A DNA stretch of 38,168 nucleotides from Anaerolineae bacterium (lineage in GTDB: Bacteria; Chloroflexota; Anaerolineae; Anaerolineales; E44-bin32): positions 1-38,168 of the forward strand of contig JAUWHR010000090.1 in NCBI GenBank assembly GCA_030605795.1. Direction: 5' to 3'. The notes beneath the pieces were generated by a model. That model saw only the letters and a list, made by a program, of their open reading frames with translations. It had not been told where the DNA came from and made no database searches. The translations under genes and the position numbers were made by a program. Positions 15,166 to 33,148 of the stretch are shown here, piece by piece; positions within the stretch are counted from its first letter, which is position 1; the number at the start of each line of letters is the position of its first letter.

Positions 15166-15180
15166 GCGAGTGGCTAAGCC
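15166..15180 (-). repeat. Degenerate attC end closing the distal cassette
   Basis: GCGAGTGGCTAAGCC resembles GGCGAGTGGTTAAGCGGCC at the corresponding edge of the attC at 16251-16517, with one change in the core (GCTAAGC for GTTAAGC). It lies nine bases 3' of the HNH gene, where an attC is expected. I cannot see the partner core site, so it is a half-site at best. Confidence 0.35.
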
Positions 15181-15188
15181 GACAACAA

Positions 15189-16214
15189 TCAATCGCTTCG
15201 AGGGATAGGCTTTCCCATCACATAATCCCATAAGCAATCGTGAATGGCAATTTTGGTGCATGCGATTGGGATATAGATGAAAGCATTCTGTTCTCCAAAT
15301 TCAGCAAGCTTGGCGCGGAAATTGGGCATTCTTGAATGAACCAGACTTCCGAGAACTGCAGGGACGAATTGAAAAGGAAGCCTTATCTGATATCGCAGGA
15401 AGCTAATCTGAAGATGGATTTTCTCATCTTCACGACCCGGAATAACAACACCAATATCAGGATCACCGAACGGATTCTCCGAATTGTCTACCACCAGGAC
15501 GTCATCTGACTCGGGGAATACGAGAATATCAGCATCTCTATAAAGGGATTGAAAAATGTAGTCTCTTACAGGGTTGATTGCTTCTTGGAAAACATATCTA
15601 TAGCCCAGAGAAAAAAAAGCAAGTAGATATGCAGAAGTAATCCACCCTGAACGCGCCAATTCATGTTTTACACGCCTGTAGGGGTGGATCATCAGTGGAA
15701 ATTTCTCGCCAGCATCTACGAGCGAGCGAAACCGTGTTTCTTCTTTTGGGTTATTCCGAGCCCACTGCCTACGTTGCCTATCAATCTCGAAAGTGATTTT
15801 TCCTCTTACTACATCCTCTTGACGCAGAGTAAGCTTGGCTTGTATTTTGATAGGCTCTTCACCGGGACCTCTTGTTACAAGTACTATCCTTTCACCAAAA
15901 AGCTCGCCAGTTTCCTCTCCCTCCCGTAGCTTCTCAAATTCCTGAGCGTGCTTATCGCCTCGGCTCCCAGCAGTTGAATTGCACTTGTTGCACAATAGCA
16001 CATGTTGGTGATTTGCTAAGTCTCCCTGACCACGTTCTCGAATCACTGAAGGCCATACATGGGCAATAGACAATAAAGCATTATTAATATCTGCGAGATG
16101 GAATGCCCCGAAGCATATAGGACAGACAAAGTAACTCTCAAGCCCTGGGAATACAGATGACAGGTCCTGAGAATGGGAATTGAAGAGGCGTTCAAGGTAA
16201 GTCGCAGAAGGCAC
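15189..16214 (-). CDS. HNH-family nuclease-like protein (cassette gene)
   Basis: A 341-residue protein. The N-terminal 90 residues form an HNH/zinc-finger nuclease module: C31 and C34 (CPIC), AHVWP with H52, LANHQH (68-71), C75 and C78 in LCNKCN, then GSRGDKH. The remaining 250 residues are not recognised and contain one hydrophobic stretch. The start is GTG at 16214, with GAGGGG eight bases upstream. The gene starts about 40 bases after the attC core at 16251 and ends near a degenerate half-site at 15166-15180, so it fills one cassette. A restriction or defence role is plausible but unproven. A homing or generic DNase role is the alternative. Confidence 0.7.
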   Translation of the reverse strand: MPSATYLERLFNSHSQDLSSVFPGLESYFVCPICFGAFHLADINNALLSIAHVWPSVIRERGQGDLANHQHVLLCNKCNSTAGSRGDKHAQEFEKLREGEETGELFGERIVLVTRGPGEEPIKIQAKLTLRQEDVVRGKITFEIDRQRRQWARNNPKEETRFRSLVDAGEKFPLMIHPYRRVKHELARSGWITSAYLLAFFSLGYRYVFQEAINPVRDYIFQSLYRDADILVFPESDDVLVVDNSENPFGDPDIGVVIPGREDEKIHLQISFLRYQIRLPFQFVPAVLGSLVHSRMPNFRAKLAEFGEQNAFIYIPIACTKIAIHDCLWDYVMGKPIPRSD

Positions 16215-16250
16215 GACAGTGTCCCCTCATTTGAAAAGAATGGTTGGCCG

Positions 16251-16517
16251 GCCTAACGTTTTGAGCTGAGCGGCCCGATTTCAACCTCGTCATGGAGCTC
16301 AAGCCTTTCACAAATCCGCCTGCTGGCCGGGTCCACGCCAGCGAGAGCCTGTGTAAAAAGCCCAAAATTTTTCGACAACACGGGACAGCGCCACACTTTT
16401 CATGCATATTTTGTTGTATTAAGGGAACTGACTCCCATTTTTAATCACTTTTCGGCGTTTTCCTCCCACCGATTATCTTTTCGCCGACTTTTTACACAGT
16501 CTGGCGAGTGGTTAAGC
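16251..16517 (-). repeat. attC site carrying a 151-bp insert
   Basis: Plus-strand GCCTAAC (16251-16257) and GTTAAGC (16511-16517) are perfect matches to RYYYAAC and GTTRRRY. The inner left motif TTTTGAGCTGAGCGGCC is shared with the other attC sites. It separates the 792-residue fusion gene from the HNH gene. At 267 bp it is too long for its siblings, but removing the MITE-like insert at 16349-16499 leaves 116 bp, in line with them. Confidence 0.7.
16349..16499. mobile_element. MITE-like element with perfect 12-bp terminal inverted repeats
   Basis: CTGTGTAAAAAG (16349-16360) and CTTTTTACACAG (16488-16499) are exact inverted repeats enclosing 151 bp of non-coding sequence. It sits in the loop of an attC. 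No target duplication is obvious. A related end (TTCACACAG followed by TCTGGCAAATGGTTATGC) is at 30263-30289, again inside an attC. Confidence 0.6.
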
Positions 16518-16548
16518 GGCCTTTAATGAAGGGGATTCAATACGTCTA

Positions 16549-18927
16549 TTACTTTTTTAGTGACCAATACATATCGATCTCAGGACCCTCAAGTAATACC
16601 GTTTTATTGCCTCTTCGAATGAAGAATTTGTTACATAGATACTGCTTAGAGTCAGCTGGCTTCACAGTAATTAAGCAGAGGTCCTTTTCTTCTAAGTTTA
16701 GCCTCGAAATCTCAACTAAATCAGCATCTAGCACATAAGGACTTATTCGGTTCTCGATAAAGTTAAGAAGTTTCTGGTAGTAACCATCCCATTCGTCTTT
16801 TCCATATTCGGAATCAACACCATATGCAATCTTGGAGTTAATCATAGGGCAATCCGATAATTTATCCTCGAAAACCTTTTCATATCTCATTTTCTCGAGA
16901 ATACCAACAAGCACATCGCCGCCTTTAGTATTTAGAAATGCAACAATGGTTTTCAAAACACCCTCATCGGGTAGTTCGCTTGATATTTCGAATTTTCCGT
17001 CACCAAGTAGGTATCGATCGATATCAAGTCCTACCGACCCTTTAAACTCCAGTGTTTCGCTCTCCTCTCTATCGATGTAGTAATTTACTCCTTTTCTTCT
17101 CTTTTCAAACCTATCCTCTGATCTTAGTGACTCCTCAAATTTCTCAAGCCAGATGGATCTGAATCCAATATTCGCGTCTCTTATTATCCTTGACAATTCC
17201 AATCTCACTTGGCGGCTCTTCTGACTTGCCCCCCCTGCACCTCGATAGGCATTAATCTTATCCTCGTCAGCGTCTAGTAAGTGAATGATAAGGGGCTCAA
17301 GAAACTTGAAGATTGCTGATCGATAACTTTTAATGCTTTGCAACTCGGACTTAGATAAGTTACATTCAACAATATCCCTAAGAATGCCAGTGAGGACTAC
17401 AAATCCTGCATTTGTACGTATGTAGTGATCATCTCCCGCCTGCCATTCTTCCTCTAATTCCTCTTTGATTAGGTTATAAAAGGCGCAAATACGCTCAGTG
17501 GCAAACTCGATACTTTCTTGATATGTGCCATTAAACAGAAGCCCCTCTCCCTTTGATATTAATTTGTGTCTTTGTATAGTAGTGCACACTGAAGTAAGTG
17601 TCAGATTCCCATCATTTTGCTCTTTAGGGATATAAATCTGATTCCTAAATGGAGATGAATCCAACTGATTTAAATTTTTTGCAATCCTGGAGATAGCATA
17701 AAGCTCAAGTTCTTTATCAACCTTAGAGTCAATATAAAGGTCTTCATATAGATCCCATAGAAGGTTAGCTTCAATGGATTTTTGGTTCTTGTTAATGTCA
17801 ACAAACATCTTTGCCTCAAGGCTGATATCCTCATCAACAAAGGCAACTACCGGTAGAGTCTCAGAAAATTTCTCATGAGTATCTGCATATCCATAAAGAC
17901 GATGTTGACCATCAACGATCCATGCACAGCCGTAATAAGGAGGCAGAGTGATGGCAACTGGGCGCACATTCTGCTTTAATTGTTCTATGTGCTTCTTGTC
18001 ACCTAGGATCTCCTTCTTATGAAGCTTTCTTTGAAAATTAACGATTATTGCTCCAGGAAAGAAACCTCCGTCTTTAATGAAACTCTCAATCTTTCGAAGC
18101 CTAGATTTCTTGAGCATCCTTTGATAACTGTCAGATAATCTTAAAAAACTTGATTCACTTGATCTATGATGAACAAAGGCGATTTTTAATAGATCCTCCG
18201 GAGCAAGTACCAATGTGTAATAGGTATGACCACCCATTTTCGATTCAAGCGCTGGCACTTTTAATTCGAAACCCTTTATCTTCTTCCCAAGAAATATCCG
18301 ATTATAGATTTGATACTTGGCCCCCTCACCTGCAAGATTCGCGAGATCTTGGAGGGCCATAAGATCATATTCATCCCAACATATGAATCCAGCATCATCA
18401 GCATCAATCTTGTCATTGTCAGCCCAAATGATATTTTCAGTAGCAATAATGTGAACGAATTTCAATGAACGAACACCGATTAATCTACGAAGAGAGTTCC
18501 CGATTCTTTTCTTGTTCCCAGATAATTCAGCAATGTCCTTTCGTAAGCTTTTCTTACCAAGCGTCTCCCGTGTTTTACATTCAATAACAAAAACAATGTC
18601 ATCATCAATTGCAAGGACATCGATTTGTTTTGTCTTTTTAACTTTATCAACATCTCTAATTAGGATCGAAAATCCAGCAGACGATATCTTATCGGCACCT
18701 AGTTCAAAAAACAGCATCCATACTTTATCCTCCAGCTGCCTGCTAAGCTTCTTATCCTTGCAAATATGCTTGACTGTCTTGAATTCTCGTAGCAAATTCC
18801 AACCTTCTGGGATTTGACTATCTATCGGTATGGATTTTTTTAGACGGCTCTTTTTCCTTTCTTTATATTCGAAATCTAGCTCATCCTCAGCTAGCAGGGA
18901 ACCTTGGACAAGAACTTTTTCTGCCAT
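16549..18927 (-). CDS. PD-(D/E)xK nuclease - DGQHR (DndB-like) - AlbA_2 fusion protein (cassette gene)
   Basis: A 792-residue, three-part protein. Residues about 65-160: a nuclease-like fold with D103 (QIDVLAID) and E116-x-K118 (VIECKT), matching PD-(D/E)xK. Residues about 230-400: a DGQHR domain with YQRMLKKSRLRKI, FFPGAIIVNF, DGQHR at 339-343 and INKNQKS at 378-384, as in DndB-like and other modification or restriction associated proteins. Residues about 611-792: an AlbA_2/Schlafen-type domain with ETLEFKG near 627 and FLNTKGGDVLVGI near 664. ATG 18927 has AGGAAAGG upstream. It fills the cassette between attC sites 16251-16517 and 18991-19088. The sequence is AT-rich compared with the flanking operons. 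I do not know a characterised protein with this exact order. A defence role is the best inference. Confidence 0.75.
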   Translation of the reverse strand: MAEKVLVQGSLLAEDELDFEYKERKKSRLKKSIPIDSQIPEGWNLLREFKTVKHICKDKKLSRQLEDKVWMLFFELGADKISSAGFSILIRDVDKVKKTKQIDVLAIDDDIVFVIECKTRETLGKKSLRKDIAELSGNKKRIGNSLRRLIGVRSLKFVHIIATENIIWADNDKIDADDAGFICWDEYDLMALQDLANLAGEGAKYQIYNRIFLGKKIKGFELKVPALESKMGGHTYYTLVLAPEDLLKIAFVHHRSSESSFLRLSDSYQRMLKKSRLRKIESFIKDGGFFPGAIIVNFQRKLHKKEILGDKKHIEQLKQNVRPVAITLPPYYGCAWIVDGQHRLYGYADTHEKFSETLPVVAFVDEDISLEAKMFVDINKNQKSIEANLLWDLYEDLYIDSKVDKELELYAISRIAKNLNQLDSSPFRNQIYIPKEQNDGNLTLTSVCTTIQRHKLISKGEGLLFNGTYQESIEFATERICAFYNLIKEELEEEWQAGDDHYIRTNAGFVVLTGILRDIVECNLSKSELQSIKSYRSAIFKFLEPLIIHLLDADEDKINAYRGAGGASQKSRQVRLELSRIIRDANIGFRSIWLEKFEESLRSEDRFEKRRKGVNYYIDREESETLEFKGSVGLDIDRYLLGDGKFEISSELPDEGVLKTIVAFLNTKGGDVLVGILEKMRYEKVFEDKLSDCPMINSKIAYGVDSEYGKDEWDGYYQKLLNFIENRISPYVLDADLVEISRLNLEEKDLCLITVKPADSKQYLCNKFFIRRGNKTVLLEGPEIDMYWSLKK

Positions 18928-18990
18928 TAATCGCCTTTCCTTTCTTCAATACTATAAAATGAAACAAGTAACTTGATTTTCAAACTGGCC

Positions 18991-19088
18991 GCATAACGTC
19001 CTCGAGATGAGCGGCCTGTACTCAACCTCGGCATGGAATTCTAGCCATGCACAAACTCGCCAGAATCTCGGGTCACGAGTGGTTATGT
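18991..19088 (-). repeat. attC site
   Basis: GCATAAC (18991-18997) and GTTATGT (19082-19088) bound 98 bp with the shared inner motif CTCGAGATGAGCGGCC and CTCAACCTCGGCATGG, the latter also seen in the attC at 16251. It lies 50 bases 3' of the AAA ATPase gene and upstream of the 792-residue fusion gene, as expected for a cassette boundary. Confidence 0.7.
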
Positions 19089-19137
19089 AGCCATTTTCTT
19101 TGCGTTCAATGAATATACCTTTGAGCAATGAGAATCC

Positions 19138-20433
19138 TCAAGCAACGGACTCGGCCGTCGAATTCTTCTCAATCGAGGTTTCTAGCACAGATGGATCTGT
19201 GGTGTAGAACTTAATCCAAAGAGCGAAGCCTTTGTGTTGAAGCCGATAAATGCCTCTAGTTCCCTCTTTCGAGAGAATGATATACCTATCGCGCAAAGCT
19301 TTAATGGCATTGGATAGAGTGGAATCCTTACCCTTGAATTTGGCTCGGATATTCTTCTTAGATACCCAGTCATCAAGATTGTCAGCCATGATGCGAAGGA
19401 CTTGTCGGTAGCTATCCTTCTGAATCTTGTTGTAAAAGTTATCCCGATAATAGCGGTCACCAATGAGCTCGAGGGCGCCTCCTACTCCCAATGCTCCTTG
19501 GACTACATCATCGCGATCAATAAGATCATCTTGATCAGCTGCAAATGCTGAATAACCAAATTGCTGGATGAAGTGATGATAACCTTCTGAGAACGCCACC
19601 AAAAAATAACGGGCTTCATCATTGATCTGGGTTTGCTCTTCATTGTCCTCGTTCGCTTTTTCTATATACCTATCTATTACCTGGATGACTTCGTCATTGG
19701 TAAGCCGCCCCAACTCGAGGTGTTCGAATAGCCTAAGAGAAGACGGATGGCTCTCTCTGAGCACATTTCGCAATTCTGACAGACCAACTAACCCGACCAT
19801 TACTCTATCGCATCCTCGCCTTTGCAACCGCTCCAATAGCAACTTAAAGAATGACCCAAGATCGAGGGCTCTAGAGGCGTTGTCAGCCTCATCGATTAGT
19901 ATCAGAACACCATTGTAGTGCGCATTAAAAAGCTCCATACCCTGGATTTGGCTACATACTCTTTCGACAGTTTCCGCCAAAGAATAAGCAAATCTCTCAA
20001 GCAATGTTTCATCGGGCTTGGAACCGTCAGCTGGGCTTATTCGAAATCCGCTTACCTCAAGACGCTGGAGAAAAGACCAGGTGTCAGATAAGAATTTTCT
20101 CGCCTTCTCTGAATTACCCAATTCCTTCTCTAGCCCCAGCTCTATTTTCTTTACGAGCCCCAATTGGGTTGTATTCTGATCAATGTCGGTATCTATAACC
20201 AAGAAATTGAATTCGTTTTCATTGACGGGGATCTCTCCCCTCGCTACAAAGCCCAGGTAATTCATGATTGATGACTTACCAATGCCTCTTTCACCGGTAA
20301 TGAGGAAATTTGAGGGTTGCCCGGACCTCGTCTGGAATAAATACGATTCGAGCCTTAATATTTCATTCAGCCGACCTACAAACATCCCGGGGTTGACAGG
20401 GTAATTCGGATTGAATGGGTTAATTTTTGGCAT
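19138..20433 (-). CDS. AAA/ORC-CDC6-like ATPase with C-terminal winged helix (cassette gene)
   Basis: A 431-residue ATPase. Near the N-terminus come NPFNPNYPVNPGMFVGR, then Walker A GERGIGKSS (47-55) and Walker B VLILIDEAD (176-184), a sensor-like strand (RVMVGLVGLSEL), and a C-terminal winged-helix region around residues 335-400. This is the layout of archaeal-type or Cdc6-like AAA proteins, also used as regulators or defence ATPases paired with nucleases. ATG 20433 has AGGAGA eight bases upstream. An attC follows its stop at 50 bases. A degenerate attC at 20664-20767 may separate it from the next gene pair, giving it its own cassette with a 230-base leader. Confidence 0.75.
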   Translation of the reverse strand: MPKINPFNPNYPVNPGMFVGRLNEILRLESYLFQTRSGQPSNFLITGERGIGKSSIMNYLGFVARGEIPVNENEFNFLVIDTDIDQNTTQLGLVKKIELGLEKELGNSEKARKFLSDTWSFLQRLEVSGFRISPADGSKPDETLLERFAYSLAETVERVCSQIQGMELFNAHYNGVLILIDEADNASRALDLGSFFKLLLERLQRRGCDRVMVGLVGLSELRNVLRESHPSSLRLFEHLELGRLTNDEVIQVIDRYIEKANEDNEEQTQINDEARYFLVAFSEGYHHFIQQFGYSAFAADQDDLIDRDDVVQGALGVGGALELIGDRYYRDNFYNKIQKDSYRQVLRIMADNLDDWVSKKNIRAKFKGKDSTLSNAIKALRDRYIILSKEGTRGIYRLQHKGFALWIKFYTTDPSVLETSIEKNSTAESVA

Positions 20434-20663
20434 TGCTCGAATCTCCTAATAATAAGATATCACCATATCTGCTGGTTTCAACTAGGGATTACATGGAATT
20501 AATTCTATACAGTACCCCATTCGGGCGGGTAAAAGCGTATGCGTGATAGTTTACCAATGCTCAATACTATCGTGTTTATATGATGTTATTCTGTGTGTTG
20601 AAATATCCCTACAAAACTGATCCCATCGACGTATCCTAGACTTGACAGCCTGGCCGCTACCAG

Positions 20664-20767
20664 GCCATTCATTGAGCTGATAGCGGTTCCAGTCAATCTG
20701 GATGAACGATCAAGCCCAGTCAAGCTGGATGGAGGACTGGACGAGCGGTCTGCTGCAGTGGCTTAGG
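20664..20767 (-). repeat. Degenerate attC-like site
   Basis: GCCATTC then GAGCTGATAGCGG at 20664-20693 resembles GCCTAAC with GAGCTGAGCGG of the other attCs. GCAGTGGCTTAGGAGCC at 20755-20771 resembles GCGAGTGGTTAAGCGGCC. The span is 104 bp and sits 15 bases 3' of the 355-residue gene. Both core sites have lost the AAC/GTT triplet, so it is probably inactive. The remainder of 20434-20781 shows nothing else. Confidence 0.4.
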
Positions 20768-20781
20768 AGCCACACAAATGA

Positions 20782-21849
20782 TTATTGATCGAAAAATTTT
20801 GCGACTTCTTGATCTGTCTCTCTTGTGGCGGCTGACAGATCGAAAATCGCACAAATCCCCCCACTCTCCCCACGATAGTCCTTATTCTGTTCAAAAACCT
20901 CTAGTAAGCTATATTCAGTTCTTTTCGCAATTGCTACAATCACTTTTCTAACGAATGACTTTTCTTGGTCTGCACCTAACACATACAGTCTTTCAATGTC
21001 ATTATTTGCATGGTAAAGGGCCTTATTAACATAGGTATCGACACGTCGCCATGGCATGGGTTGCGCAACAAGAAGGAAACCATAGCTCGAGATCTCACTC
21101 TTCCTATCCCACAGCTCATCGGGAGAATTTGGATATTCATTAATGAAGGAAGCTATATGATTAACGATTTCCCTCAGTTCATCAACGATTTGACTTCTTA
21201 GAGGAGAATAACGGACTCTCTTGGCTAGGTCAGCAACTTCACGAATATATACACCAGTGAAATAGCCTCGACTATCCATAGTGCTATAGTGGCCCAGATA
21301 GTAGGCTATTTCTTCGTCAACTTCAATCGCCGTGTCTAGATATCGTCTTTCGAAGTCACTTAAGGCGTAAGGATGTCCTTTCGAGATTGTCCGTCTTGAA
21401 AGTTGCAGAACAGCAGCTTTCCGTGGCAAATGAGGTACTACCTCTTTAATCCCCCGAAACATCGCCTTCTTAAAAAAGTAGTAGATGCCGTTAATTAGGT
21501 TTTGATCTTGGTCATCAAATGGCCTGATCCTTAATATCAATTCCTCCTCTTCAAGCTCATCAGGTGTCTCTTCATGGACCCAATCTATCTTAGCCTTACT
21601 TATCCAGCCAACTGGCAACTCCTTTTGTAAGTATGAGACTGAATTATTAACTACTTCTTCGATATTGCTTGCTATTGCGCGCTTCTCTAATGCTCGGTGC
21701 TTCAAACACCCAGCAATTGATCTGTATACATATGACCTAAAAGAATTCAGCTTAGGAATAACGTCGAATAACAGCTTTAGAAATGCTAGAACTGGAACCG
21801 TTGCACCAATAAATGCAAATATATCTTTGAGTGAGATTCCAAAAATCAT
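20782..21849 (-). CDS. Unknown membrane-anchored protein, first-helix type (cassette gene)
   Basis: A 355-residue protein not recognised. A hydrophobic helix near residues 8-28 is followed by a basic stretch and then a mostly helical, charged soluble region, suggesting a cytoplasmic domain held at the membrane. No catalytic motif is visible. ATG 21849 has AGGAG nine bases upstream, overlapping the stop of the 87-residue gene that precedes it by 12 bases, so the two are translated together. The pair lies between the attC at 22162-22264 and the degenerate site at 20664-20767 and is likely one cassette. Confidence 0.65.
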   Translation of the reverse strand: MIFGISLKDIFAFIGATVPVLAFLKLLFDVIPKLNSFRSYVYRSIAGCLKHRALEKRAIASNIEEVVNNSVSYLQKELPVGWISKAKIDWVHEETPDELEEEELILRIRPFDDQDQNLINGIYYFFKKAMFRGIKEVVPHLPRKAAVLQLSRRTISKGHPYALSDFERRYLDTAIEVDEEIAYYLGHYSTMDSRGYFTGVYIREVADLAKRVRYSPLRSQIVDELREIVNHIASFINEYPNSPDELWDRKSEISSYGFLLVAQPMPWRRVDTYVNKALYHANNDIERLYVLGADQEKSFVRKVIVAIAKRTEYSLLEVFEQNKDYRGESGGICAIFDLSAATRETDQEVAKFFDQ

Positions 21850-21861
21850 CAGCTATAGCTC

Positions 21862-22125: not shown

Positions 22126-22161
22126 CTTATATCCTTGTTTGCGCTAGAGTAATGCTATTCT

Positions 22162-22264
22162 GCCTAATGGTGCGCGAGATGAGCGGAACCCCCAAGGTGC
22201 GTTGCGCCAAAGGTACAAAAGCGCCGCAGTGGGGCGAAGCGCAGACCCCGGTTTCTTGTTGACG
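22162..22264 (-). repeat. attC-like site
   Basis: GCCTAAT (22162-22168) and GTTGACG (22258-22264) bound 103 bp. The inner segment GCGAGATGAGCGG matches the shared attC motif. One core is off consensus (T for C at its last position). It separates the mini-HNH gene from the 87/355 gene pair. Confidence 0.55.
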
Positions 22265-22656: not shown

Positions 22657-23075
22657 CTATAGCTCCTCCAGCTCCATCCTCGCGACCGCTACCTCCAGAT
22701 CCCACTCGATTGGTTTGGTGTAACGGGCAGTGCTATCAACCCGTTTAGGACCTATGAGGTGCTTTACCGTCACCAGGTCAACCCCCTTGTCAAGTATGCT
22801 TCGAACGAAGGCGTTCCTTAGAACATGATGGCTGCATCGCGTTTGCTACCATGCATCTGAACCACCCGCAGCAGCCGGTGGTAGAGTCTCTCATCAAGCG
22901 ATCGGGGAGCTCTTGGCAGTTCTCCAAGATTTCGCACTCGAACCGGGTTCTCCTTGATGTGGCCCTCTTGGATGGCCCAGGAGAAGTAAGCCCTAAGCGA
23001 CGACTGGCGCCGGTTTATCGTGTCGAGCTTACTTTGATGAAAGTACATGGCACCCAACTTCGCCAAAGCCACCAA
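22657..23075 (-). pseudogene. Tyrosine recombinase remnant R1, internally deleted
   Basis: Residues of the core-binding domain (KLGAMYFHQS, INRRQSSLRAYFSWAIQEG, ENPVRVRNLG, APRSLDERLYHRLLRVV) read cleanly to RDAAIM. The sequence then jumps into the region that encodes HVLRHTFARS in copy R4, with a frame loss, so the Box I arginine and the catalytic lysine region are deleted. The C-terminal end with ARYTKP remains. The stop is TAG at 22657-22659. It is closest to R4, and homology continues upstream to about 23302. Confidence 0.8.
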
Positions 23076-23302
23076 TTCTCACAGTTATTGTATCGCACCG
23101 ATCTCAAGAAATCCTGAGTGAGTGGGATTATACATGCCAACATACTGGAGTTCTGAGCCATTCTCGAGAAATGGTACTGATCTTCAAATACTTGAAAATA
23201 AATTCACATCAAACTTGGATAGGGCCAATCCAGAGGTAATAATCAACCTATAAAGACTGAAAAATGCTCCTGGGACTTCATGGAGCGCTCTGTCGTGCGT
23301 CA
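22851..23302 (-). repeat. Long direct repeat shared with 37551-38006
   Basis: The recombinase N-terminal part plus about 185 bases of 5' leader is present twice in the same orientation, with scattered substitutions and small indels. The leader contains the near-perfect palindrome CCATTCTCGAGAAATGG (23158-23174). No gene is visible in 23118-23302. Confidence 0.75.
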
Positions 23303-25268: not shown

Positions 25269-25281
25269 AACCATCCCTCTT

Positions 25282-26070: not shown

Positions 26071-26763
26071 CTAATCCAACGAAGGGTCTCGGCATTAGGT
26101 AGCGGTCTGCGCATTCGCTGTTGAGTAGGTCTTCGCCTTTCAATGCGGTGCGTTCGACGTCCCCACTTTACTGACCTTTTTGCCTTACGCTATGAGGTTT
26201 GCTGGCAGGCTTGAGAGAGAAGACTCTCCAGCTCGTCGCAATGAGATTTCCCCCACAAATTGATTCCTCGGCTCCCTTGTTGAGGATTCGCCTGGGCCCT
26301 GCAGTGTATGCATTATTGATATCGCTTCGACTGCTCGTTACCTATTATACAACCACATTCTCTGACTTCTGTAAATCCATTGATAATGCAACCGATGCTT
26401 GGGCTAGCGCCCCCCTCCGGCTCCAGATCTTGATTGCAACCAAATTCCCTATAGGAGGTTTAGGGTGCTACCCACTGATCCACATCACTAACACAAGCCA
26501 GGATATAGCGATCCACGTGGCGACGGTGCAGTTCAGCAAAAGCAGACGGTGATCGTTTTGCTCTATGGGTAAGCACATCGTCCTCTATGTCTGCCAGCTC
26601 AAATTCCCCCCCTTGAGAGGTCAAGTCCTAGATTTGCTGTAAAAACAACAGCATGAATCAAGCTGAACGGCGGAGAATCCTTCCCGAATCAGACACCTGA
26701 GTGATTTTTGGCCATATCGATGCCATCATTTTGGCATAATGAGAACGATCTGTACTTATTAAC
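26071..26763. other. Intergenic region with no supported gene
   Basis: The region separates two divergent units. It holds a plus-strand open frame (26199-26552) with no family resemblance and no convincing ribosome site, so I do not call it. No attC, hairpin or repeat stands out. Confidence 0.5.
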
Positions 26764-26791
26764 TTGAGTTTAGAGTATAATTGACTATAAT
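26764..26791 (+). promoter_or_regulatory. Promoter of the TM-helix repeat protein gene
   Basis: TTGAGT (26764-26769) and TATAAT (26786-26791) are 16 bases apart. A second TATAAT at 26776-26781 overlaps the spacer. The leader to the ATG at 26889 would be about 90 bases. Confidence 0.5.
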
Positions 26792-26888
26792 TCGGAGGAC
26801 AGGTCGTCAACTTACTACCAGGGGACACTCAATTCTTCCGCAAGCATATCCGTACAGCTATACAATATATCGAAAGGAGAGAAACTGG

Positions 26889-28400
26889 ATGCCAGAGCTA
26901 ATACAGCAATTCCTACAAACCTTATGGAGCTACCTACCCAACGCGCTAGGAGCCCTCGCAATCCTAGTCGGGGGTTGGCTGGTCGCATTATTTGTGGCCG
27001 CCATCGTACGGCGCGTGCTCAGACGGACCACGATTGATGATAGGATTGCCGCTTTTATCTGGGGCGAAGAGGAAGTAAAAGCTGGTCGCATCGATATCGA
27101 ACGTTGGGTCGGAAAGGCTGTCTATTACTTGATCATGTTATTCGTGATCGTCGCCTTTCTACAAGCATTCAACCTAACCATCGTAGCTGAGCCGATCAAT
27201 CAGCTTCTGAACCAGATCCTTACATATCTCCCCCTGTTACTTGGAGCTGCTGTCCTGTTGCTTGTAGCATGGGTCATCGCCAGCGGGCTCAGATTTATCA
27301 TTTTTCGGCTTTTGAAGGCAGCAAAATTAGATGAACGCCTATACAGCCAGGCCGACATTGAGGCACCCGAGCAAATTTCTATAACCAACACAATTGGCAA
27401 TGTTGTTTATTGGCTGGTGTTTTTGCTCTTCTTGCCGGCAGTGCTGGACGCGTTAGGCCTTCAAGGATTGCTTGGCCCAGTCCAGAGCATGGTGGACGAA
27501 ATCCTAGGTGTACTACCAAACATCTTAGGAGCCGGGCTGATTCTGCTGGTTGGTTGGCTAGCTGCACGCATCGTGCGCAAGATCGTCACCAACTTGTTGG
27601 TTGGCGTTGGCGTGGATCGCCTCGGAGATCAAACTGGATTGGCAACCGCACTGGGTGACCAGCAACTATCAAAGGTGATCGGCACGATTGTCTACGTGCT
27701 GATCCTCATTCCTGTGGCGATCGCCGCTCTGAACGCCCTACAGATTCCGGCAGTATCGGAGCCAGCCTCCCAGATGCTCACCACCATACTTAACGCCCTG
27801 CCAGCCATCTTTGGCGCTTTATTGCTGATAGGCATCGCCTACTTCGCAGCTAGGCTCGTGGGTACCTTTGTGACCAACGTCTTGAACGGAATTGGATTTG
27901 ATAGGGTGTTGAGCTGGATCGGTGTAGGCGGCGAAGTTGCCGAGGGACGAAGGACACCATCCGAAATCGTCGGCTACCTAGTCATCGTCGCGATCATGTT
28001 CTTCGCCGTAATCGAAGCTGCAAACATGCTTGGCTTCACCATTCTGGCGGACCTGGTCTCCAAATTACTGGTGGCAGCAGGTGGCGTTCTGCTGGGCTTG
28101 GTAATTTTCGGCCTGGGCTTGTACCTGGCTGGGCTTGCACACCGAGTGATCCGTGATGCTGGCGGCTCGCAAGCCCACATCCTTGCGCCTGTAGCTCGTA
28201 TCGCCATCACTGTGTTCTCTGGCGCCTTGGCCCTTCGCCAAATGGGAATCGCTGAGGAAATTGTCAACCTGACCTTTGGGCTCTTGCTTGGCGCAATTGC
28301 TGTGGCAGCGGCACTAGCCTTTGGTCTTGGCAGTCGCGAAATTGCATCACGCGAGCTCGAGCGCCTGCTTGAAAATCTGCGACACACGGAGCAAGAATGA
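26889..28400 (+). CDS. Conserved TM-helix repeat protein (mechanosensitive-channel-related, PF05552 type)
   Basis: A 503-residue membrane protein made of at least four similar units of about 110-120 residues, each starting with a pattern such as QILTYLPLLLGAAVLL, VDEILGVLPNILGAGLIL or LTTILNALPAIFGALLLI. Each is followed by a small-residue-rich helix, a basic stretch and a short D-R turn (DDRIA, DERLY, VDRLG, FDRVL). This is the conserved TM-helix repeat found next to or within MscS relatives, but the MscS beta domain is absent. The ATG at 26889 has AAAGGAGAG eight bases upstream; the frame extension to 26781 crosses the promoter. It is a single-gene unit ended by a terminator. Confidence 0.75.
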   Translation: MPELIQQFLQTLWSYLPNALGALAILVGGWLVALFVAAIVRRVLRRTTIDDRIAAFIWGEEEVKAGRIDIERWVGKAVYYLIMLFVIVAFLQAFNLTIVAEPINQLLNQILTYLPLLLGAAVLLLVAWVIASGLRFIIFRLLKAAKLDERLYSQADIEAPEQISITNTIGNVVYWLVFLLFLPAVLDALGLQGLLGPVQSMVDEILGVLPNILGAGLILLVGWLAARIVRKIVTNLLVGVGVDRLGDQTGLATALGDQQLSKVIGTIVYVLILIPVAIAALNALQIPAVSEPASQMLTTILNALPAIFGALLLIGIAYFAARLVGTFVTNVLNGIGFDRVLSWIGVGGEVAEGRRTPSEIVGYLVIVAIMFFAVIEAANMLGFTILADLVSKLLVAAGGVLLGLVIFGLGLYLAGLAHRVIRDAGGSQAHILAPVARIAITVFSGALALRQMGIAEEIVNLTFGLLLGAIAVAAALAFGLGSREIASRELERLLENLRHTEQE

Positions 28401-28540
28401 AGACTGACCCATGAGGAACACCAAATGACGGGTGGGCAGAATCGCCTGCCCGTCACTTCACCAACTCGACTCATTTATGCATAGAATCAATTGGGCGCCT
28501 GGATCTTTGCGAGCACAAAGAGCGCGCCCAGCAATCTAAA

Positions 28541-28587
28541 GCCCCCCGCACTAAGCAGCCCCCTGCAGACGGGGGGCGAATTTTCTT
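28541..28587 (+). terminator. Rho-independent terminator after the TM-helix repeat gene
   Basis: GCCCCCCG (28541-28548) pairs perfectly with CGGGGGGC (28570-28577), followed by GAATTTTCTT. An alternative stem GCCCCC/GGGGGC uses the nearer arm. A second GC-rich inverted repeat (TGACGGG...CCCGTCA) lies just after the stop at about 28426-28455 without a T-run. Confidence 0.65.
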
Positions 28588-28726
28588 ACTTGATTAGACT
28601 CTGATAAAGTTCTACCCTTCGTTCTCCATCGCACCTAACCTCAGTTTACCTTATGGTCTCTCTCGCCGGGGCCACTACTCTACTGGTATAAGGATACTCC
28701 AGATTGCAATGTGGCGAGTCAAGGCT

Positions 28727-28894
28727 TGGGCTGGCGTAGAGGAACTAGGACTTGAGTTATACCAAGCCCTGTATGCTTCAGAACCTTATCTACGCGATGC
28801 CGCCTTCGAAGCGCTCTGGAGACTACGGGCGGCTGGTATTGAATTACTTCCACCGGATCAATACGGTTTAGAGCAAACAATTCCCCCCTTATAA
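28727..28894 (+). pseudogene. Remnant of a second NACHT-HEAT NTPase gene, 3' end only
   Basis: Bases 28727-28887 align without gaps to 14771-14931, the end of the NACHT-HEAT gene. I count 10 differences in 161 bases. Eight are synonymous, and the other two change one codon (ACA to GTA, T to V). The last 70-odd bases are identical. The frame ends with a TAA at 28892-28894. The mostly silent differences mean the source gene had been under protein-level selection. Nothing of the rest of the gene is visible upstream; the upstream flank up to the terminator at 28587 is unrelated. Confidence 0.85.
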
Positions 28895-28916
28895 AAAGGA
28901 TTTGACCTCAGTTTCT

Positions 28917-29585
28917 CTAAGTGATCGATTGAACCTGTGTAATGACGATCTCCCGGAACATCTCCTCTTCCGTGTCTCTCCAGTTTCCGGACCAGTCTAT
29001 CTTGAGAAGTATTTCAGCTTGGTAATCATTCTCTGAGTAAAGGGATACCTTGATACCGTAAGATCCTGGTTTAAAGGCGTTGGTCTGAAAAAATGGACTT
29101 CTGTAGAGGTCGAGAAGAAAGCGAAGGCCATCACTTTTAGTCCCAGGTGCATCATAAATGGAATCTTCATCTAACCTTTCTTGAATGTGCTTTGAAGGAA
29201 TGTTGCCGACATTCCATAATATTGGGCGTTTTGGAGTTATATCAATGTAACGTGGGTTTTTGGGGTCGAAGCGTAGATTAACTGGAAAGAAATCCTCTTG
29301 CTTTTTCGGCTTCCCAGAAGCGTCATGAAACCAGAGTTCCATTATGACTGCTTCGACCTTCCTTGCCGTGGACTTTCCTTCATTTACTACCTGAAAATGA
29401 AAGTCGAATACCGGTTCCTTCAGGTCAGGTTCTTGTTTAAAGTATCGCGAAGAACGACGGCTCATTGGCTGGTCATGGATATAGGAAATCTTGAGCTTTG
29501 GAGCGAGGTATTTTCGCTGTAGTAGCCATACTACATACGGAGCAACAAACGCAGTGATCACGAGGACTAGTTCGGAAACGGTCAT
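28917..29585 (-). CDS. Unknown membrane-anchored protein (cassette gene)
   Basis: About 222 residues, not recognised. The N-terminus has one membrane helix (LVLVITAFVAPYVVWLL), followed by a soluble domain rich in strands, with FDFHFQVVNEGKSTARKVEA resembling an extracytoplasmic or Ig-like beta fold often annotated as hypothetical. ATG 29585 has GGAGGGG three bases upstream. It begins 34 bases after the attC core at 29619-29625, as cassette genes do. Its 3' side has no attC and instead abuts the NACHT remnant 22 bases away, so the distal cassette end has been lost. Confidence 0.6.
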   Translation of the reverse strand: MTVSELVLVITAFVAPYVVWLLQRKYLAPKLKISYIHDQPMSRRSSRYFKQEPDLKEPVFDFHFQVVNEGKSTARKVEAVIMELWFHDASGKPKKQEDFFPVNLRFDPKNPRYIDITPKRPILWNVGNIPSKHIQERLDEDSIYDAPGTKSDGLRFLLDLYRSPFFQTNAFKPGSYGIKVSLYSENDYQAEILLKIDWSGNWRDTEEEMFREIVITQVQSIT

Positions 29586-29618
29586 TTTCCCCTCCAATTC
29601 TATTCAGGACCGGATTTC

Positions 29619-29708
29619 ATCTAACTGCTTAGAGCTGAGTGGCACCGCAAGGTCCCTTCACCTGGTTTTCACCCAGCAGTTGGCACCAGTTCCAGCGAGA
29701 TGTTATCG
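29619..29708 (-). repeat. attC site
   Basis: ATCTAAC (29619-29625) and GTTATCG (29702-29708) bound 90 bp, with the inner motif TTAGAGCTGAGTGGC. The stop codon of the 3'-most gene of the preceding cassette (TAA at 29703-29705 on the minus strand) lies inside the core site. Confidence 0.7.
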
Positions 29709-30038
29709 GGCGGCAAATCCAAGGACCCCGAATCGTCTACCTCCTAAGGGTTCTATCTCAATCCTTGGCGGTCTGCCTTTGGACCATGGAGCAAGCCGAG
29801 TGGCAATTAGCCAGTGCCCAATATCCTTGTTTATGAGCTCGCGACAGCGACTGTCCCAAAACGACTTCTTGGCCACATTAATCTCTACCTTAACCCAATG
29901 ACCTCGATAGGGAAGCTCTAGTATTATCGACTTCCAGCGCTTGCTGAAGTACGCATCCCGATCGGCAGGCGCCAGCTTCAAACCATAGCCCGCACCGGAT
30001 GGACTGTGCTTTCCATTGTTCCACGCTGTCGCGATCAT
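29703..30038 (-). CDS. Conserved small protein of unknown function (cassette gene)
   Basis: About 111 residues. The blocks NNGKHSPSGAGYGLKL, DRDAYFSKRWKSI, FWDSRCRELINKDIGHWL and LAPWSKGRPPRIEIEPLG-RRF form a pattern I recognise as a widespread single-domain hypothetical family, without a known function. I choose ATG 30038 over an upstream TTG at 30047; neither has a good ribosome site. Its stop lies inside an attC core site, a classic cassette arrangement. The 5' side leads within about 90 bases to recombinase remnant R2. Confidence 0.6.
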   Translation of the reverse strand: MIATAWNNGKHSPSGAGYGLKLAPADRDAYFSKRWKSIILELPYRGHWVKVEINVAKKSFWDSRCRELINKDIGHWLIATRLAPWSKGRPPRIEIEPLGGRRFGVLGFAAR

Positions 30039-30124
30039 TGATCTCAAACCTGTCTGCCGTCCGATACTGGATATCTGGAATCAAATCTTTATATCTTCCC
30101 TCTTTGGGGAGTTTTGCTGAAATC

Positions 30125-30229
30125 TCAAATCTCCTCCAGCTCCAGCCTCGCCACCGCAACTTCTAGATCCCGCTCGCTGGGTTTGGTATAGCGCGCTGTG
30201 CGCTCAATCCGTTTGTTACCCATGAGGTG
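30125..30229 (-). pseudogene. Tyrosine recombinase remnant R2, C-terminal end only
   Basis: About 34 codons remain, reading HLMGNKRIERTARYTKP, SERDLEVAVARLELEE, then TGA at 30125-30127. They match the end of R4. The catalytic tyrosine (ARYTKP) is kept and everything upstream is gone. Upstream it runs straight into an attC edge with a MITE-like end. Confidence 0.75.
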
Positions 30230-30262
30230 TTTTTCTCTTACTTTTCATCTTTTCATTGAATT

Positions 30263-30289
30263 TTCACACAGTCTGGCAAATGGTTATGC
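30263..30289 (-). repeat. Partial attC with MITE-like end
   Basis: TCTGGCAAATGGTTATGC at 30272-30289 matches TCTGGCGAGTGGTTAAGC of the attC at 16517, and the adjacent TTCACACAG resembles the insert end there. GTTATGC (30283-30289) is the core. It is 17 bases 3' of the 389-residue nuclease gene. The other half of the attC is missing: remnant R2 takes its place. Confidence 0.55.
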
Positions 30290-30305
30290 GGCCTGCAAAA
30301 TTAAA

Positions 30306-31475
30306 TCATTTCGATTTTCCAAATCTAATCCTTTCTATTCTTTCGAGTAGTAAGGACCAAAAAGAAGAATGTTTGTTTTGGAATTCTTTAAGATCAGAGA
30401 GATCCAGGACCACACAAATACTACCGTCTTCGTGAAATGATTTCCGAATAATACTTCTTGCCGATTTTTCGTTTTCCACTGTTCCGGTCACGCCCAGTTT
30501 TGAAAAGATTACTCCAAATCTAACATGCGTAAGTCTCATCCGATAAAGAAAGTATCCTACCTCTTGAACGCCAATCTTCATGTCCCAATTCTTACATTCA
30601 ACAAGAATATGTCTACCAAGAATTTCAACTGTGGGATCGCTTGTTCTTTTCAAGTTCCTAACTACGATATCGGTTTCGAAGGTATTGAATTCATCAAGCA
30701 AGTTCCTTCGTGGACTCCAAGCAGGTATTAGCATAAATAAATACGTTGCTAAATCTTCTAAGATTTCCCCCTTCTCTTTTGAGGATGCATGATCAACATC
30801 GACCAATGAAAGTAATGAGTTGTAATAAGGCAATGAAAGTGGGTATTCCTGAAGTAAGGAGTCTTGGGCAAACAGATGAGATGATTCTGGAGCTTGTAAC
30901 GCGAATTTTATAAGAATATTCTCTGCGTATGCTTCCGGTCTACTCCAGTCTTTTGATGAATTATTTTCAACAATCGTAAGATTGTTCTTAGCAATCTTAT
31001 TAAATAGCTTCAATTCTTCCGAGGCAATTCCAAAAATTGTGACGAGTGCTTGCTTACCAGCCCCTCCCCCTTTTGAATGTCCTCCAAGAATATCGTCTGC
31101 CTGTGTAAGAAGCGCCCATCTTATCGCGGCCCCATTGTCCCCATGTGATAGATACAGTTTGGAAAGATAGTACCCAAGGCCAGCGCGATAGATCCTTTGA
31201 TTATCTTCTCTCTGAATTCTCCCAAATAGATCCCAGGCAGAGAACAACAAAGATTGAGAAGCCGCCAGGTATCCATTTGCTAGGAAGAGATTTGAGACAC
31301 CTCCATATGCATTACAAGCATCCTTAGCTTTATTTAATTCCCTGGGATCGTAATCCTCGCCTGGATTGCAAGCCTCCTCCAGAATTGATCTTGCTTTATC
31401 GAGAAAATCAATTGGATCTAATTCATACTTCCCATATTCATTGAAGATATTTTGAATTCTATCTATTGGTTTCAT
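30306..31475 (-). CDS. Helical-domain plus PD-(D/E)xK nuclease-like protein (cassette gene)
   Basis: A 389-residue protein. Residues 1-230 are helical and TPR-like in look (LANGYLAASQSLLFSAW, GLGYYLSKLYLS). Residues 235-389 form a restriction-endonuclease-like domain: E239 in the first helix, D269 in FETDIVV, and E293-x-K295 in ILVECKNW, followed by a helix-strand pair GVIFSKLG. This is the D...ExK motif of PD-(D/E)xK enzymes of the Mrr/REase-like type. The start is ATG 31475, with AAGGA close upstream. It starts 21 bases from the attC at 31496-31585 and ends 17 bases from an attC core. The target and partner are unknown. Confidence 0.7.
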   Translation of the reverse strand: MKPIDRIQNIFNEYGKYELDPIDFLDKARSILEEACNPGEDYDPRELNKAKDACNAYGGVSNLFLANGYLAASQSLLFSAWDLFGRIQREDNQRIYRAGLGYYLSKLYLSHGDNGAAIRWALLTQADDILGGHSKGGGAGKQALVTIFGIASEELKLFNKIAKNNLTIVENNSSKDWSRPEAYAENILIKFALQAPESSHLFAQDSLLQEYPLSLPYYNSLLSLVDVDHASSKEKGEILEDLATYLFMLIPAWSPRRNLLDEFNTFETDIVVRNLKRTSDPTVEILGRHILVECKNWDMKIGVQEVGYFLYRMRLTHVRFGVIFSKLGVTGTVENEKSARSIIRKSFHEDGSICVVLDLSDLKEFQNKHSSFWSLLLERIERIRFGKSK

Positions 31476-31495
31476 GGATCCTTCTCAAATAAGCC

Positions 31496-31585
31496 GCATA
31501 ACGGCTCCGGGCTGAGCGGCCCGGCAAGACTCCGAGCGAAATCAAAGCCGGTAGCGCACCAGGCCCGCTCAGCCTGATGTTGGGC
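31496..31585 (-). repeat. attC site, the most symmetric in the window
   Basis: GCATAAC (31496-31502) and GTTGGGC (31579-31585) bound 90 bp. The inner arms GGGCTGAGCGGCC and GGCCCGCTCAGCC are inverted repeats offset by a few unpaired bases, the expected attC hairpin. It lies between the 218-residue and 389-residue genes. Confidence 0.8.
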
Positions 31586-31614
31586 GGATTTATTAATCGT
31601 AGAAAATTTATTGC

Positions 31615-32271
31615 CTAATCTTCCCAATCGATTTTGAACTTTCTTGTTGCTCCTTCTGATAACTTGATTGACAAATATGCCTTCATTGGACCATCTGGCC
31701 AGAAGCGAGGAGTTAATTGATTGTGAACCTTGGTCAAGCTCCAGGATGTCTTAGTACTTACTTCTACTTCGTTCCCCATAGCGTCAGTAATAACCTCCGA
31801 CATGGCACCGGCTCGCAGATATCCATGAGCATAAACAATATTTGTCATGACGCTTGATATCATATCTGCTTCGTTATCACATCTTGGAGATGTAATGGCA
31901 AAATGGGCGGCGACTTTATGGCGATAAGATGTGACCCGTGGAATAACTCTTTTTACATATCCATTGATGAACTTCGTATCCTTGCTTACTAACCAGCCTG
32001 TCAAGCGTATATAGTTGTATAGAGACACCGCATACCATTGGAACGCACATGACAACCAATCTGTAGGCAAACCCTTTAATACGCCATCAACGACTCCAAT
32101 CAATGTATTGTCTTTTCTTGCTTCTATGCGAGCTTGCCGTTCTGCTGCCGCCACAGAGTCATACAGCCAAAACAATCCCTGACTAATTCGTGATAGGGTC
32201 ATTTGGGCATCAAATAAGTAATCCTCGTCATCAGCAATCAACCTTAGCTTCTCAACATGATCTAAGATCAT
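31615..32271 (-). CDS. Unknown soluble helical protein (cassette gene)
   Basis: A 218-residue protein not recognised, mostly helical. No metal-binding or nucleotide motif stands out; there is an Arg-His pair in SYRHKVAAHFAI (around residue 125), which in some families forms an active or structural site but is not diagnostic. ATG 32271 has GGAGG four bases upstream. It starts about 60 bases after the attC at 32330-32453 and ends 30 bases before the attC at 31585, so it fills a single-gene cassette. Confidence 0.6.
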   Translation of the reverse strand: MILDHVEKLRLIADDEDYLFDAQMTLSRISQGLFWLYDSVAAAERQARIEARKDNTLIGVVDGVLKGLPTDWLSCAFQWYAVSLYNYIRLTGWLVSKDTKFINGYVKRVIPRVTSYRHKVAAHFAITSPRCDNEADMISSVMTNIVYAHGYLRAGAMSEVITDAMGNEVEVSTKTSWSLTKVHNQLTPRFWPDGPMKAYLSIKLSEGATRKFKIDWED

Positions 32272-32329
32272 ATCTCCTCCAAAAAGAGCTTCGATGATTT
32301 GATGATTAGGAGCAATTAAGACATAATCG

Positions 32330-32453
32330 GCCTAACGGTCGTGAGCTGAGCAGCCGTGGTTCAAACCTTATATTGCTCTCCGAGCATCCCTATCATATAA
32401 CCTGGACTAGATTTCACCCAGCATCCCCGGTCGCCCCCTACGAGAGGTTAGGC
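32330..32453 (-). repeat. attC site with perfect core sites
   Basis: GCCTAAC (32330-32336) and GTTAGGC (32447-32453) are perfect consensus and reverse complements of one another. The inner motif GTGAGCTGAGCAGCC is shared. At 124 bp it is the longest uninterrupted site. It lies 10 bases 3' of the 175-residue gene. Confidence 0.75.
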
Positions 32454-32463
32454 AGCCAATTCA

Positions 32464-32991
32464 TTATGGAGCACGCTCTGAGTTTTGCACGTCTTTAACG
32501 GATCTGGACATCTCGGTTACCACCACCCGAAAAGCCTCTTCCTGACTTCGAATTTGCAGATCATTTATAGTGCCCGAGGTCTTGTTTGGTATCTCTGTGA
32601 CGGGATAGCAAGTTCCAAGACCACTCGCTTGTATGTGATTCCAGAACTCAGGCGGTGGTCTGACTGACCTACCTGGCCAATCTCCATGCTGGACGAGGCA
32701 ACCACTGGGGAGAGGCTCATCACCGATAAATGCGAGACCAAGTGGATGTTGGTCAATCTCGCGTTTCTTGTCATCAACACGATTTATATTGGCCATATAG
32801 TAGGCCACTCCGCCAGGCCCGCCCGACGCGAGTATCAAGACACTGTCCGACTTGTCCAGCACGACCAAGGGGAACGTGGGCATAAGTTCTCCCAGTTGGC
32901 TCGGTTCAATAACAGTGAAGTTACCTTGCTGGCAGGTTTCATTCCACTTCTCTCTGTCAATTTGTGATGTATCGAACCAGTTGAATTTCAT
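32464..32991 (-). CDS. Unknown protein (cassette gene, downstream partner of a 38-residue ORF)
   Basis: A 175-residue protein, not recognised. It has a mixed alpha/beta look, a GGPGG turn (around residue 57) and a central hydrophobic block (FPLVVLDKSDSVLILA). ATG 32991 follows directly after the TAA of the 38-residue upstream ORF (TAAATG), so the two are translated as a pair. It ends 10 bases before an attC. Together they make the most proximal cassette of the second zone. Confidence 0.6.
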   Translation of the reverse strand: MKFNWFDTSQIDREKWNETCQQGNFTVIEPSQLGELMPTFPLVVLDKSDSVLILASGGPGGVAYYMANINRVDDKKREIDQHPLGLAFIGDEPLPSGCLVQHGDWPGRSVRPPPEFWNHIQASGLGTCYPVTEIPNKTSGTINDLQIRSQEEAFRVVVTEMSRSVKDVQNSERAP

Positions 32992-33108
32992 TTATTTATC
33001 CCTTGTCTGAACATCGAAAAGTCTCCGGAACGCGTCTCGATCAAGTGGCTGACCTCCCAGCCTCTCATGAATATCCCGTCGGACGTATGACTGACCCCTC
33101 GCAAACAT
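32992..33108 (-). CDS. 38-residue ORF with an HNH-protein N-terminal-like motif
   Basis: The frame MFARGQSYVRRDIHERLGGQ continues for 18 more residues to TAA at 32992-32994. GGAGG lies five bases upstream of the ATG at 33108, and the stop abuts the start of the next gene. The YxRRDIHxxxGGQ pattern resembles, from memory, the N-terminus of a family of HNH-containing restriction-type proteins, but the nuclease part is absent. It may be a trimmed remnant or a real small peptide. The GTTAGAC core site lies 33 bases upstream. Confidence 0.5.
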   Translation of the reverse strand: MFARGQSYVRRDIHERLGGQPLDRDAFRRLFDVQTRDK

Positions 33109-33141
33109 AAATCCTCCAACTCATTCACTATGACGCTGGAC

Positions 33142-33148
33142 GTCTAAC
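33142..33148 (-). repeat. Candidate attI-like or attC core site after recombinase remnant R3
   Basis: On the minus strand GTTAGAC is a perfect GTTRRRY, 60 bases after the R3 stop and 33 bases before the first cassette gene. The intervening sequence is recognisably similar to that after R2 (shared GAGAT, AAAAC, GGGAAGAT and ATTCCAGATAT blocks), and contains the short hairpin CCTCGCTGAGG. Confidence 0.45.

What the first reader, a model, noticed from the sequence alone, without database searches (positions are those of the whole stretch)
15166..33148. Integron-type attC cassette array of at least five good sites on one strand
Paired RYYYAAC...GTTRRRY cores 90-125 bp apart occur at 18991-19088, 22162-22264, 29619-29708, 31496-31585 and 32330-32453, plus a disrupted site at 16251-16517. 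Degenerate or half sites lie at 15166, 20664 and 30283. The inner arm GAGCTGAGCGG is shared. Each site lies 10-60 bases 3' of a minus-strand gene and 20-60 bases upstream of the next, the classic cassette spacing. No IntI gene is present in the window. Cassette arrays are known mostly from Proteobacteria, so one in this background, loaded with nucleases and unknowns, deserves attention.
Basis: partly seen in the sequence, partly recalled or inferred. Interest (0 to 1): 0.88.

Follow-up and report, generated by a model that had tools for sequence, protein, structure and literature searches.

The report
Chloroflexota integron cassettes lacking an integrase
This stretch of a Chloroflexota genome holds real integron gene cassettes left without their integrase; integrons are already known in this phylum, but one recombination site here was broken by a small transposon whose relatives appear to insert almost only into such sites, which seems undescribed.

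Summary
The observation largely holds. A covariance model trained only on attC sites next to a true integron integrase in a same-genus genome finds five window sites, all on the minus strand: 32330-32453, 31496-31585, 16251-16349, 29622-29705 and, weakly, 18991-19088. The listed site 22162-22264 keeps only its 3' half. The window is an entire contig of a Chloroflexota MAG; its sites form two short CALINs (attC clusters without integrase). One cassette (32330-33055) recurs at 96% identity on another contig, with similarity ending at the cassette boundaries. The genome's only recognisable IntI sequence is a 42-residue remnant beside another cassette on contig C93; about half of the sampled relatives carry IntI. 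Integrons in Chloroflexi have been reported since 2008, so the array is a new member of a known kind.

The 'disrupted' site 16251-16517 is an attC split by a 158-bp MITE. Its relatives, including a 1.64-kb IS1182-family insertion sequence, sit between R'' and L'' of attC sites: 12 of 15 well-matched ends have attC-like sequence upstream, against 0.3% of random positions. An attC-specialised IS1182 group seems undescribed and is the most novel part.

The parts
32330..32453 (-). attC site, about 124-nt class
   Evidence: model R1 48.4 bits, E 5e-13; second copy on contig C77
32464..32991 (-). cassette gene, 175 aa, no known family; the whole cassette is about 32330-33055
   Evidence: 96.4% identical copy on C77 over 729 bases; no Pfam match; 29% identical relative in G010
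31615..32271 (-). cassette gene, 218 aa, no known family
31496..31585 (-). attC site, 90-nt class
   Evidence: model R1 40.2 bits, E 2e-10
30306..31475 (-). cassette gene, 389 aa, weak Mrr-type nuclease match
   Evidence: PF04471 E 0.005, below Pfam's cut-off
30230..30291 (-). attC R'' half followed by the left end of the MITE, then fused to a recombinase fragment
29703..30047 (-). possible cassette ORF, 114 aa; its stop codon lies inside R'' of the next attC
   Evidence: no Pfam match
29619..29708 (-). attC site, 90-nt class
   Evidence: model R1 26.2 bits, E 4e-6 over 29622-29705
28917..29597 (-). last cassette gene of the upper cluster, 226 aa, no known family, no attC after it
22162..22190 (-). 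attC 3' half only (degenerate L' and R')
   Evidence: sequence; no model hit
19138..20433 (-). cassette gene, 431 aa AAA_16 ATPase
   Evidence: Pfam E 6e-12
18991..19088 (-). degenerate attC site
   Evidence: model R1 15.4 bits, E 0.009 in the window; + strand folds with the R box paired
16549..18927 (-). cassette gene, 792 aa: NERD-like, DGQHR/DndB-like and Schlafen AlbA_2 domains
   Evidence: DpdB E 6e-23; DGQHR 141 bits
16251..16517 (-). attC split by a MITE: R'' 16511-16517, then L'' to R' in 16251-16349
   Evidence: model R1 26.9 bits on 16251-16349
16346..16503 (-). 158-bp MITE, inverted ends AGACTGTGTAAAAAGTC / AGCCTGTGTAAAAAGCC, flanked by CTCGC on both sides
15189..16214 (-). cassette gene, 341 aa, no known family

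Best explanation
The window carries two short clusters of integron gene cassettes (CALINs) in a Chloroflexota MAG, derived from an integron whose integrase is not in this contig. From established integron biology: each cassette is a gene (rarely two) followed by an attC whose bottom strand (here the + strand) folds into a hairpin with extrahelical bases; an integron integrase (IntI) recognises it and recombines at the G^TT of R', so cassettes are gained, lost and moved. Shown here: the attC family with covariation, an intact IntI with the same attC family in the same genus, a cassette present at two loci with ends at the recombination points, and an IntI N-terminal remnant beside a cassette on contig C93. 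Inferred: these clusters are relics, now fixed or mobile only if an IntI acts in trans. One attC was split by a MITE of an IS1182-family element that inserts between R'' and L'' of attC sites; loss of function of that site is inferred.
For: Model R1, trained only on 10 IntI-linked G001 sites, hits five window sites, all on one strand. Own genome: 12 hits at E below 1e-3 on seven contigs. 30 of 61 genomes searched have hits, up to 41 per genome. Structure on the G001 sites: 91% of cells paired, covariation 0.27 against 0.09 in shuffles, pairing collapses when slid by one column. On 14 sites of the own genome: 86% paired, covariation 0.25 against 0.13 (alignment fitted to the model). G001 IntI scores 458 bits for TIGR02249 (cut-off 265) and aligns with IntI1 through the IntI-specific insert and the catalytic residues; its array runs divergently from it. 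29 of 61 genomes have IntI over the cut-off. Cassette duplication: 96.4% over 729 bp between the R' cores. IntI remnant on C93 next to a gene plus attC.
Against: The site at 18991-19088 is weak and 22162-22264 is not complete. The first cassette of the upper cluster (boundary about 33055) is not preceded by an attC or a recognisable attI. Roughly 22.7-28.9 kb is not cassette DNA. The MAG is 81% complete in 98 contigs, so an intact IntI could be missing. No recombination was tested.
Confidence: 0.94

Rival explanations
1. The clusters belong to a complete, active integron whose integrase lies in an unassembled part of the genome and which still shuffles these cassettes.
For: The genome is only 81% complete; G001 and G004 of the same genus carry IntI.
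Against: Both clusters end inside the contig, with about 5 kb of non-cassette DNA on the side where attI and intI should be. Several sites are decayed. The only IntI piece found is a 42-residue remnant on C93.
Confidence: 0.2
2. The palindromic sites are ordinary intergenic hairpins (terminators or REP-like repeats), not recombination sites.
For: Single-site folding z-scores are modest; a bare palindrome scan is not specific.
Against: They fit a model built from IntI-linked sites in another genome, covary in both boxes, and one marks the end of a duplicated cassette.
Confidence: 0.02
3. The tyrosine recombinase pieces in the window (37064-38003 and others) are the decayed integrase of this array.
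For: They flank both clusters and match the tyrosine recombinase part of TIGR02249 weakly.
Against: Matches are to the general catalytic region only and skip the IntI-specific insert (profile positions 175-236 are not covered); the best relatives outside are 33-40% identical and mostly lie in genomes of other families; scores are far below the IntI cut-off.
Confidence: 0.03
4. The 158-bp element in the split attC is not an attC-specialised transposon; it is part of a few attC sites that were copied together with their cassettes.
For: Some copies may be copied together with their attC (16454-16522 and 30226-30294 share R'' and element).
Against: Genes upstream and attC sequences differ between copies; internal parts fall into several unrelated subfamilies while the ends and the position stay the same; five loci found by transposase alone show attC flanks in four clear cases and one probable case.
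Confidence: 0.12

Closest known systems
CALIN (cluster of attC sites lacking integron-integrase; IntegronFinder, PMC9024848)
   Same: At least two attC sites under 4 kb apart, same orientation, cassettes of mostly one gene, no IntI nearby.
   Different: Chloroflexota host; one site carries an attC-targeted MITE; IntegronFinder's own attC model could not be run here.
Sedentary chromosomal integrons of Chloroflexota (phylum listed as host in PMC2426708 and PMC8618304)
   Same: Same phylum; related IntI and attC families in the same genus.
   Different: No intact integrase in this genome; cassettes are scattered over several contigs.
IS1111-attC insertion sequences (Tetu and Holmes 2008; Post and Hall 2009; cited in PMC11187229)
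   Same: Insertion at one fixed position of attC sites.
   Different: IS1111 elements use a DEDD transposase and a guide RNA; the element here has inverted ends and its full-length relative an IS1182-family DDE transposase.
IS1272 of the IS1182 family (PMC5678879)
   Same: Same transposase family (NF033551); IS1272 targets inverted repeats (stem-loops), as an attC is.
   Different: IS1272 replaces arbitrary inverted repeats without target duplication; here the target is one specific place in attC and CTCGC is found on both sides.

Membership tests
Integron cassette array (CALIN) | attC sites with R and L boxes and extrahelical bases | tested here: met
   the extrahelical A (column 23) is invariant in the G001 set
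Integron cassette array (CALIN) | at least two attC sites, same orientation, under 4 kb apart | tested here: met
   32330, 31496 and 29622 in one cluster; 18991 and 16251 in a second (one weak, one split)
Integron cassette array (CALIN) | genes between the sites, same strand, close spacing | tested here: met
   genes end 10-49 nt before their attC (one overlaps R'') and start 20-63 nt after the previous attC
Integron cassette array (CALIN) | cassettes move as units bounded by R' cores | tested here: met
   one cassette at two loci, 96.4% over 729 bases; one case only, and its 5' junction in the window lacks an attC
Integron cassette array (CALIN) | recombination of the attC bottom strand by IntI | not testable with these tools
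   needs an attI x attC assay
Complete integron | intI gene and attI next to the array | tested here: not met
   no IntI over the cut-off in the genome; only an N-terminal remnant on C93
IS1182 family, attC-directed group (proposed) | IS1182 transposase in a full-length relative | tested here: met
   L142: NF033551 292.7 bits, cut-off 270, over the larger of two ORFs into which the frame is split
IS1182 family, attC-directed group (proposed) | fixed position between R'' and L'' of attC | tested here: met
   12 of 15 ends against 0.3% background; transposase loci 4 of 5 clear, 1 probable
IS1111-attC | DEDD transposase of the IS1111/IS110 type | tested here: not met
   the full-length relative encodes an IS1182-family DDE transposase

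The most novel reading that the evidence does not exclude
A group of IS1182-family insertion sequences and their MITEs in Chloroflexota is specialised on integron attC sites. It inserts in one orientation between R'' and L'', probably by recognising the attC hairpin or its conserved CTCGCTGGAG arm, and thereby disables the site and freezes the cassette.
Probability: 0.8. Interest if true: 0.6.

Novelty: new member of a known kind. Interest (0 to 1): 0.45.

Why it matters
It adds a well-supported set of cassettes and attC sites from a lineage where integrons are little studied: in this Anaerolineae-like group about half of 61 sampled genomes have integron integrases and about half have attC sites of this family. 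Beyond that, a DDE-transposase element group dedicated to attC sites would be a further kind of attC parasite beside IS1111-attC elements and group IIC-attC introns, with a different chemistry. Its insertions would offer a natural record of which attC sites are exposed as hairpins, and a way by which cassettes become fixed.

Tried and rejected
Rfam gathering search: no hits. Bare R''/R' plus L''/L' palindrome scan: not specific. Single-strand folding of single sites: weak z-scores, uninformative alone. A 'split' IntI in G004 abuts runs of N at both pieces, so it reads as an assembly gap and not biology. Window tyrosine recombinase fragments as decayed IntI: rejected, since the IntI-specific insert is skipped and scores are low. 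PADLOC matches only the DGQHR protein among the cassette proteins. A 3-kb element-bearing stretch shared between G000:C22 and G026:C274 (96.8%) was not used as evidence of transfer because it may be bin contamination. No structure prediction of unknown cassette proteins was made: no close alignment was at hand.

Full report
WHAT THE WINDOW IS. The 38,168-base window is the whole of contig C69 of a MAG (2.66 Mb, 98 contigs, 80.8% complete). The phylum is inferred: IntI-bearing contigs of its family- and order-level relatives coincide in length and match with public Chloroflexi/Anaerolineae MAG records (for example MGNI01000085.1, 19,368 bases, for G015; JAPUGV010000279.1, 6,210 bases, for G017; PLND01000098.1, 37,972 bases, for G027).

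THE OBSERVATION. Short heptamers prove nothing here: RYYYAAC is not enriched, and a palindrome scan finds nearly as many sites in shuffles. I therefore looked for an independent yardstick. In the same genus, genome G001 has an unmistakable integron integrase (TIGR02249 458 bits, cut-off 265; the IntI-specific insert aligned with IntI1). A divergent row of attC sites lies on the other strand, between single genes. Ten of those sites were aligned. The canonical layout (R box, unpaired spacer, L box with two extrahelical bases, stem) fits: 91% of cells are paired, seven pairs change on both sides, covariation is 0.27 against 0.09 for shuffles, and pairing falls to 26-41% when slid by one to three columns.

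A covariance model from these ten sites only was run on the window. It returns five sites, all on the minus strand: 32330-32453, 31496-31585, 16251-16349, 29622-29705 and, weakly, 18991-19088. Over the whole MAG there are 12 sites at E below 1e-3 on seven contigs. Thirty of 61 genomes have sites, up to 41 per genome. On 14 sites of this genome pairing is 86% and covariation 0.25 against 0.13 (that alignment is fitted to the model and leans to it).

CASSETTE BEHAVIOUR. The unit 32330-33055 (a 175-aa gene plus attC) occurs again on contig C77 at 96.4% identity over 729 bases. On one side the similarity ends at R' (GTTAGGC); on the other it ends inside the R' of the preceding C77 attC. On the window side the sequence upstream of 33055 is unrelated and contains no attC, so this junction is unusual and unexplained. 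Genes end 10-49 nt before their attC (one overlaps R'') and start 20-63 nt after the previous one. The cassettes encode a 792-aa protein with NERD-like, DGQHR/DndB-like and Schlafen AlbA_2 domains, an AAA_16 ATPase, weak Mrr and HNH nuclease matches, and unknowns.

WHERE THE INTEGRASE WENT. No IntI over the cut-off exists in the assembly. On contig C93 a remnant of the IntI N-terminus (42 residues, 43% identical to G001 IntI) reads away from a gene plus attC on the other strand, the arrangement expected of an integron platform. In the window both clusters end inside the contig, and about 5 kb of non-cassette DNA lies on the side where attI and intI would be. These are therefore CALINs rather than the cut end of an integron. 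Whether another IntI exists in the missing part of the genome is open.

THE DISRUPTED SITE. Site 16251-16517 is an attC with a 158-bp element between R'' and L''. The element has inverted ends (AGACTGTGTAAAAAGTC, and AGCCTGTGTAAAAAGCC at the other end) and CTCGC on both sides. Searching relatives for the end sequence with no attC core in the pattern gave 15 distinct copies with at most one mismatch. Twelve of the 15 have at least 8 of 12 matches to GCCTAACNACTCG immediately upstream, against 0.3% of random positions in the same loci (the final G is shared by the search pattern, so one of the twelve positions is not independent). Longer relatives carry an IS1182-family transposase: in the 1,639-bp copy on G002:C170 the larger of two ORFs scores 292.7 bits (cut-off 270), the frame being split in two. 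Of five transposase loci found by protein search, four have clear attC sequence at the element end or ends that are present (R'' in two, L'' in one, both in one) and the fifth is a probable case. Among 400 genomes of the order the end occurs in nine genomes of this family and three others, one of them (G216) again after an attC-like R''. IS1182-family IS1272 is known to target stem-loops (PMC5678879), and IS1111-family elements are known to target attC (PMC11187229). The held literature shows no paper on IS1182 elements targeting attC (the one paper with many attC mentions only lists IS1182 in a table); that is absence from one library only.

WHAT IS KNOWN. Integron integrases were reported in Chloroflexi in 2008 (PMC2426708), and Chloroflexota are listed among integron hosts in 2021 (PMC8618304). 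CALINs are common and can arise by loss of intI, rearrangement or off-target insertion (PMC8618304, PMC9024848). The array is a new member of a known kind. The attC-directed IS1182 elements look like a new variant of a known kind (attC-targeting mobile elements).

SHOWN AND INFERRED. Shown: the attC family, strand bias, covariation, cassette duplication, the IntI remnant, and the non-random position of the element. Inferred: hairpin recombination by IntI (established for attC in general), loss of function of the split attC, relic status, and hairpin recognition by the IS1182 transposase.

Noticed in passing
window 16346-16503 and 30230-30276; G000:C77:59205, C22:7123, C14:46484, C93:28690; L142 2122-3760: IS1182-family element and MITEs sitting between R'' and L'' of attC sites, in the same orientation; candidate attC-specialised IS group.
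   Followed up: yes
window 37064-38003, 33216-33620, 22664-23301, 30068-30226: Four degraded copies of one tyrosine recombinase (not IntI), with no close relative in the other same-genus genomes searched; they lie beside or within both cassette clusters.
   Followed up: partly
window 14770-14931 and 28726-28887; 22825-23301 and 37529-38003: The 3' end of a HEAT-repeat gene and the recombinase fragment recur at a spacing of about 14-14.7 kb, one on each side of each cassette cluster: looks like an old tandem duplication whose cassette content then diverged completely.
   Followed up: partly
window 33000-33130: The 5' boundary of the duplicated cassette reads GGGAGGTCAGCC where the C77 copy has R' GTTAGGTCAGCC; in the window a short ORF (MFARGQSYVRRDIHERLGGQ..) runs through the junction.
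   Followed up: partly
window 16549-18927: Unusual cassette protein joining NERD-like, DGQHR/DndB-like and Schlafen AlbA_2 domains in 792 aa; possible phage defence.
   Followed up: partly
window 12500-14938 (+): 812-aa protein with weak NACHT/STAND-type ATPase matches and clear HEAT repeats next to the lower cassette cluster; possible defence gene.
   Followed up: no
G000:C93:26744-28072: IntI N-terminal remnant (42 aa) facing away from a cassette gene with a weak Mrr match and its attC: decayed integron platform.
   Followed up: partly
L040 1556-10308 and window attC sites: attC sites of this genus fall into two length classes, about 90 and about 124 nt.
   Followed up: no
L236 639-3642 (G000:C22) and L101 (G026:C274): 96.8% identity over 3 kb between MAGs of different genera: bin contamination or very recent transfer.
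   Followed up: no
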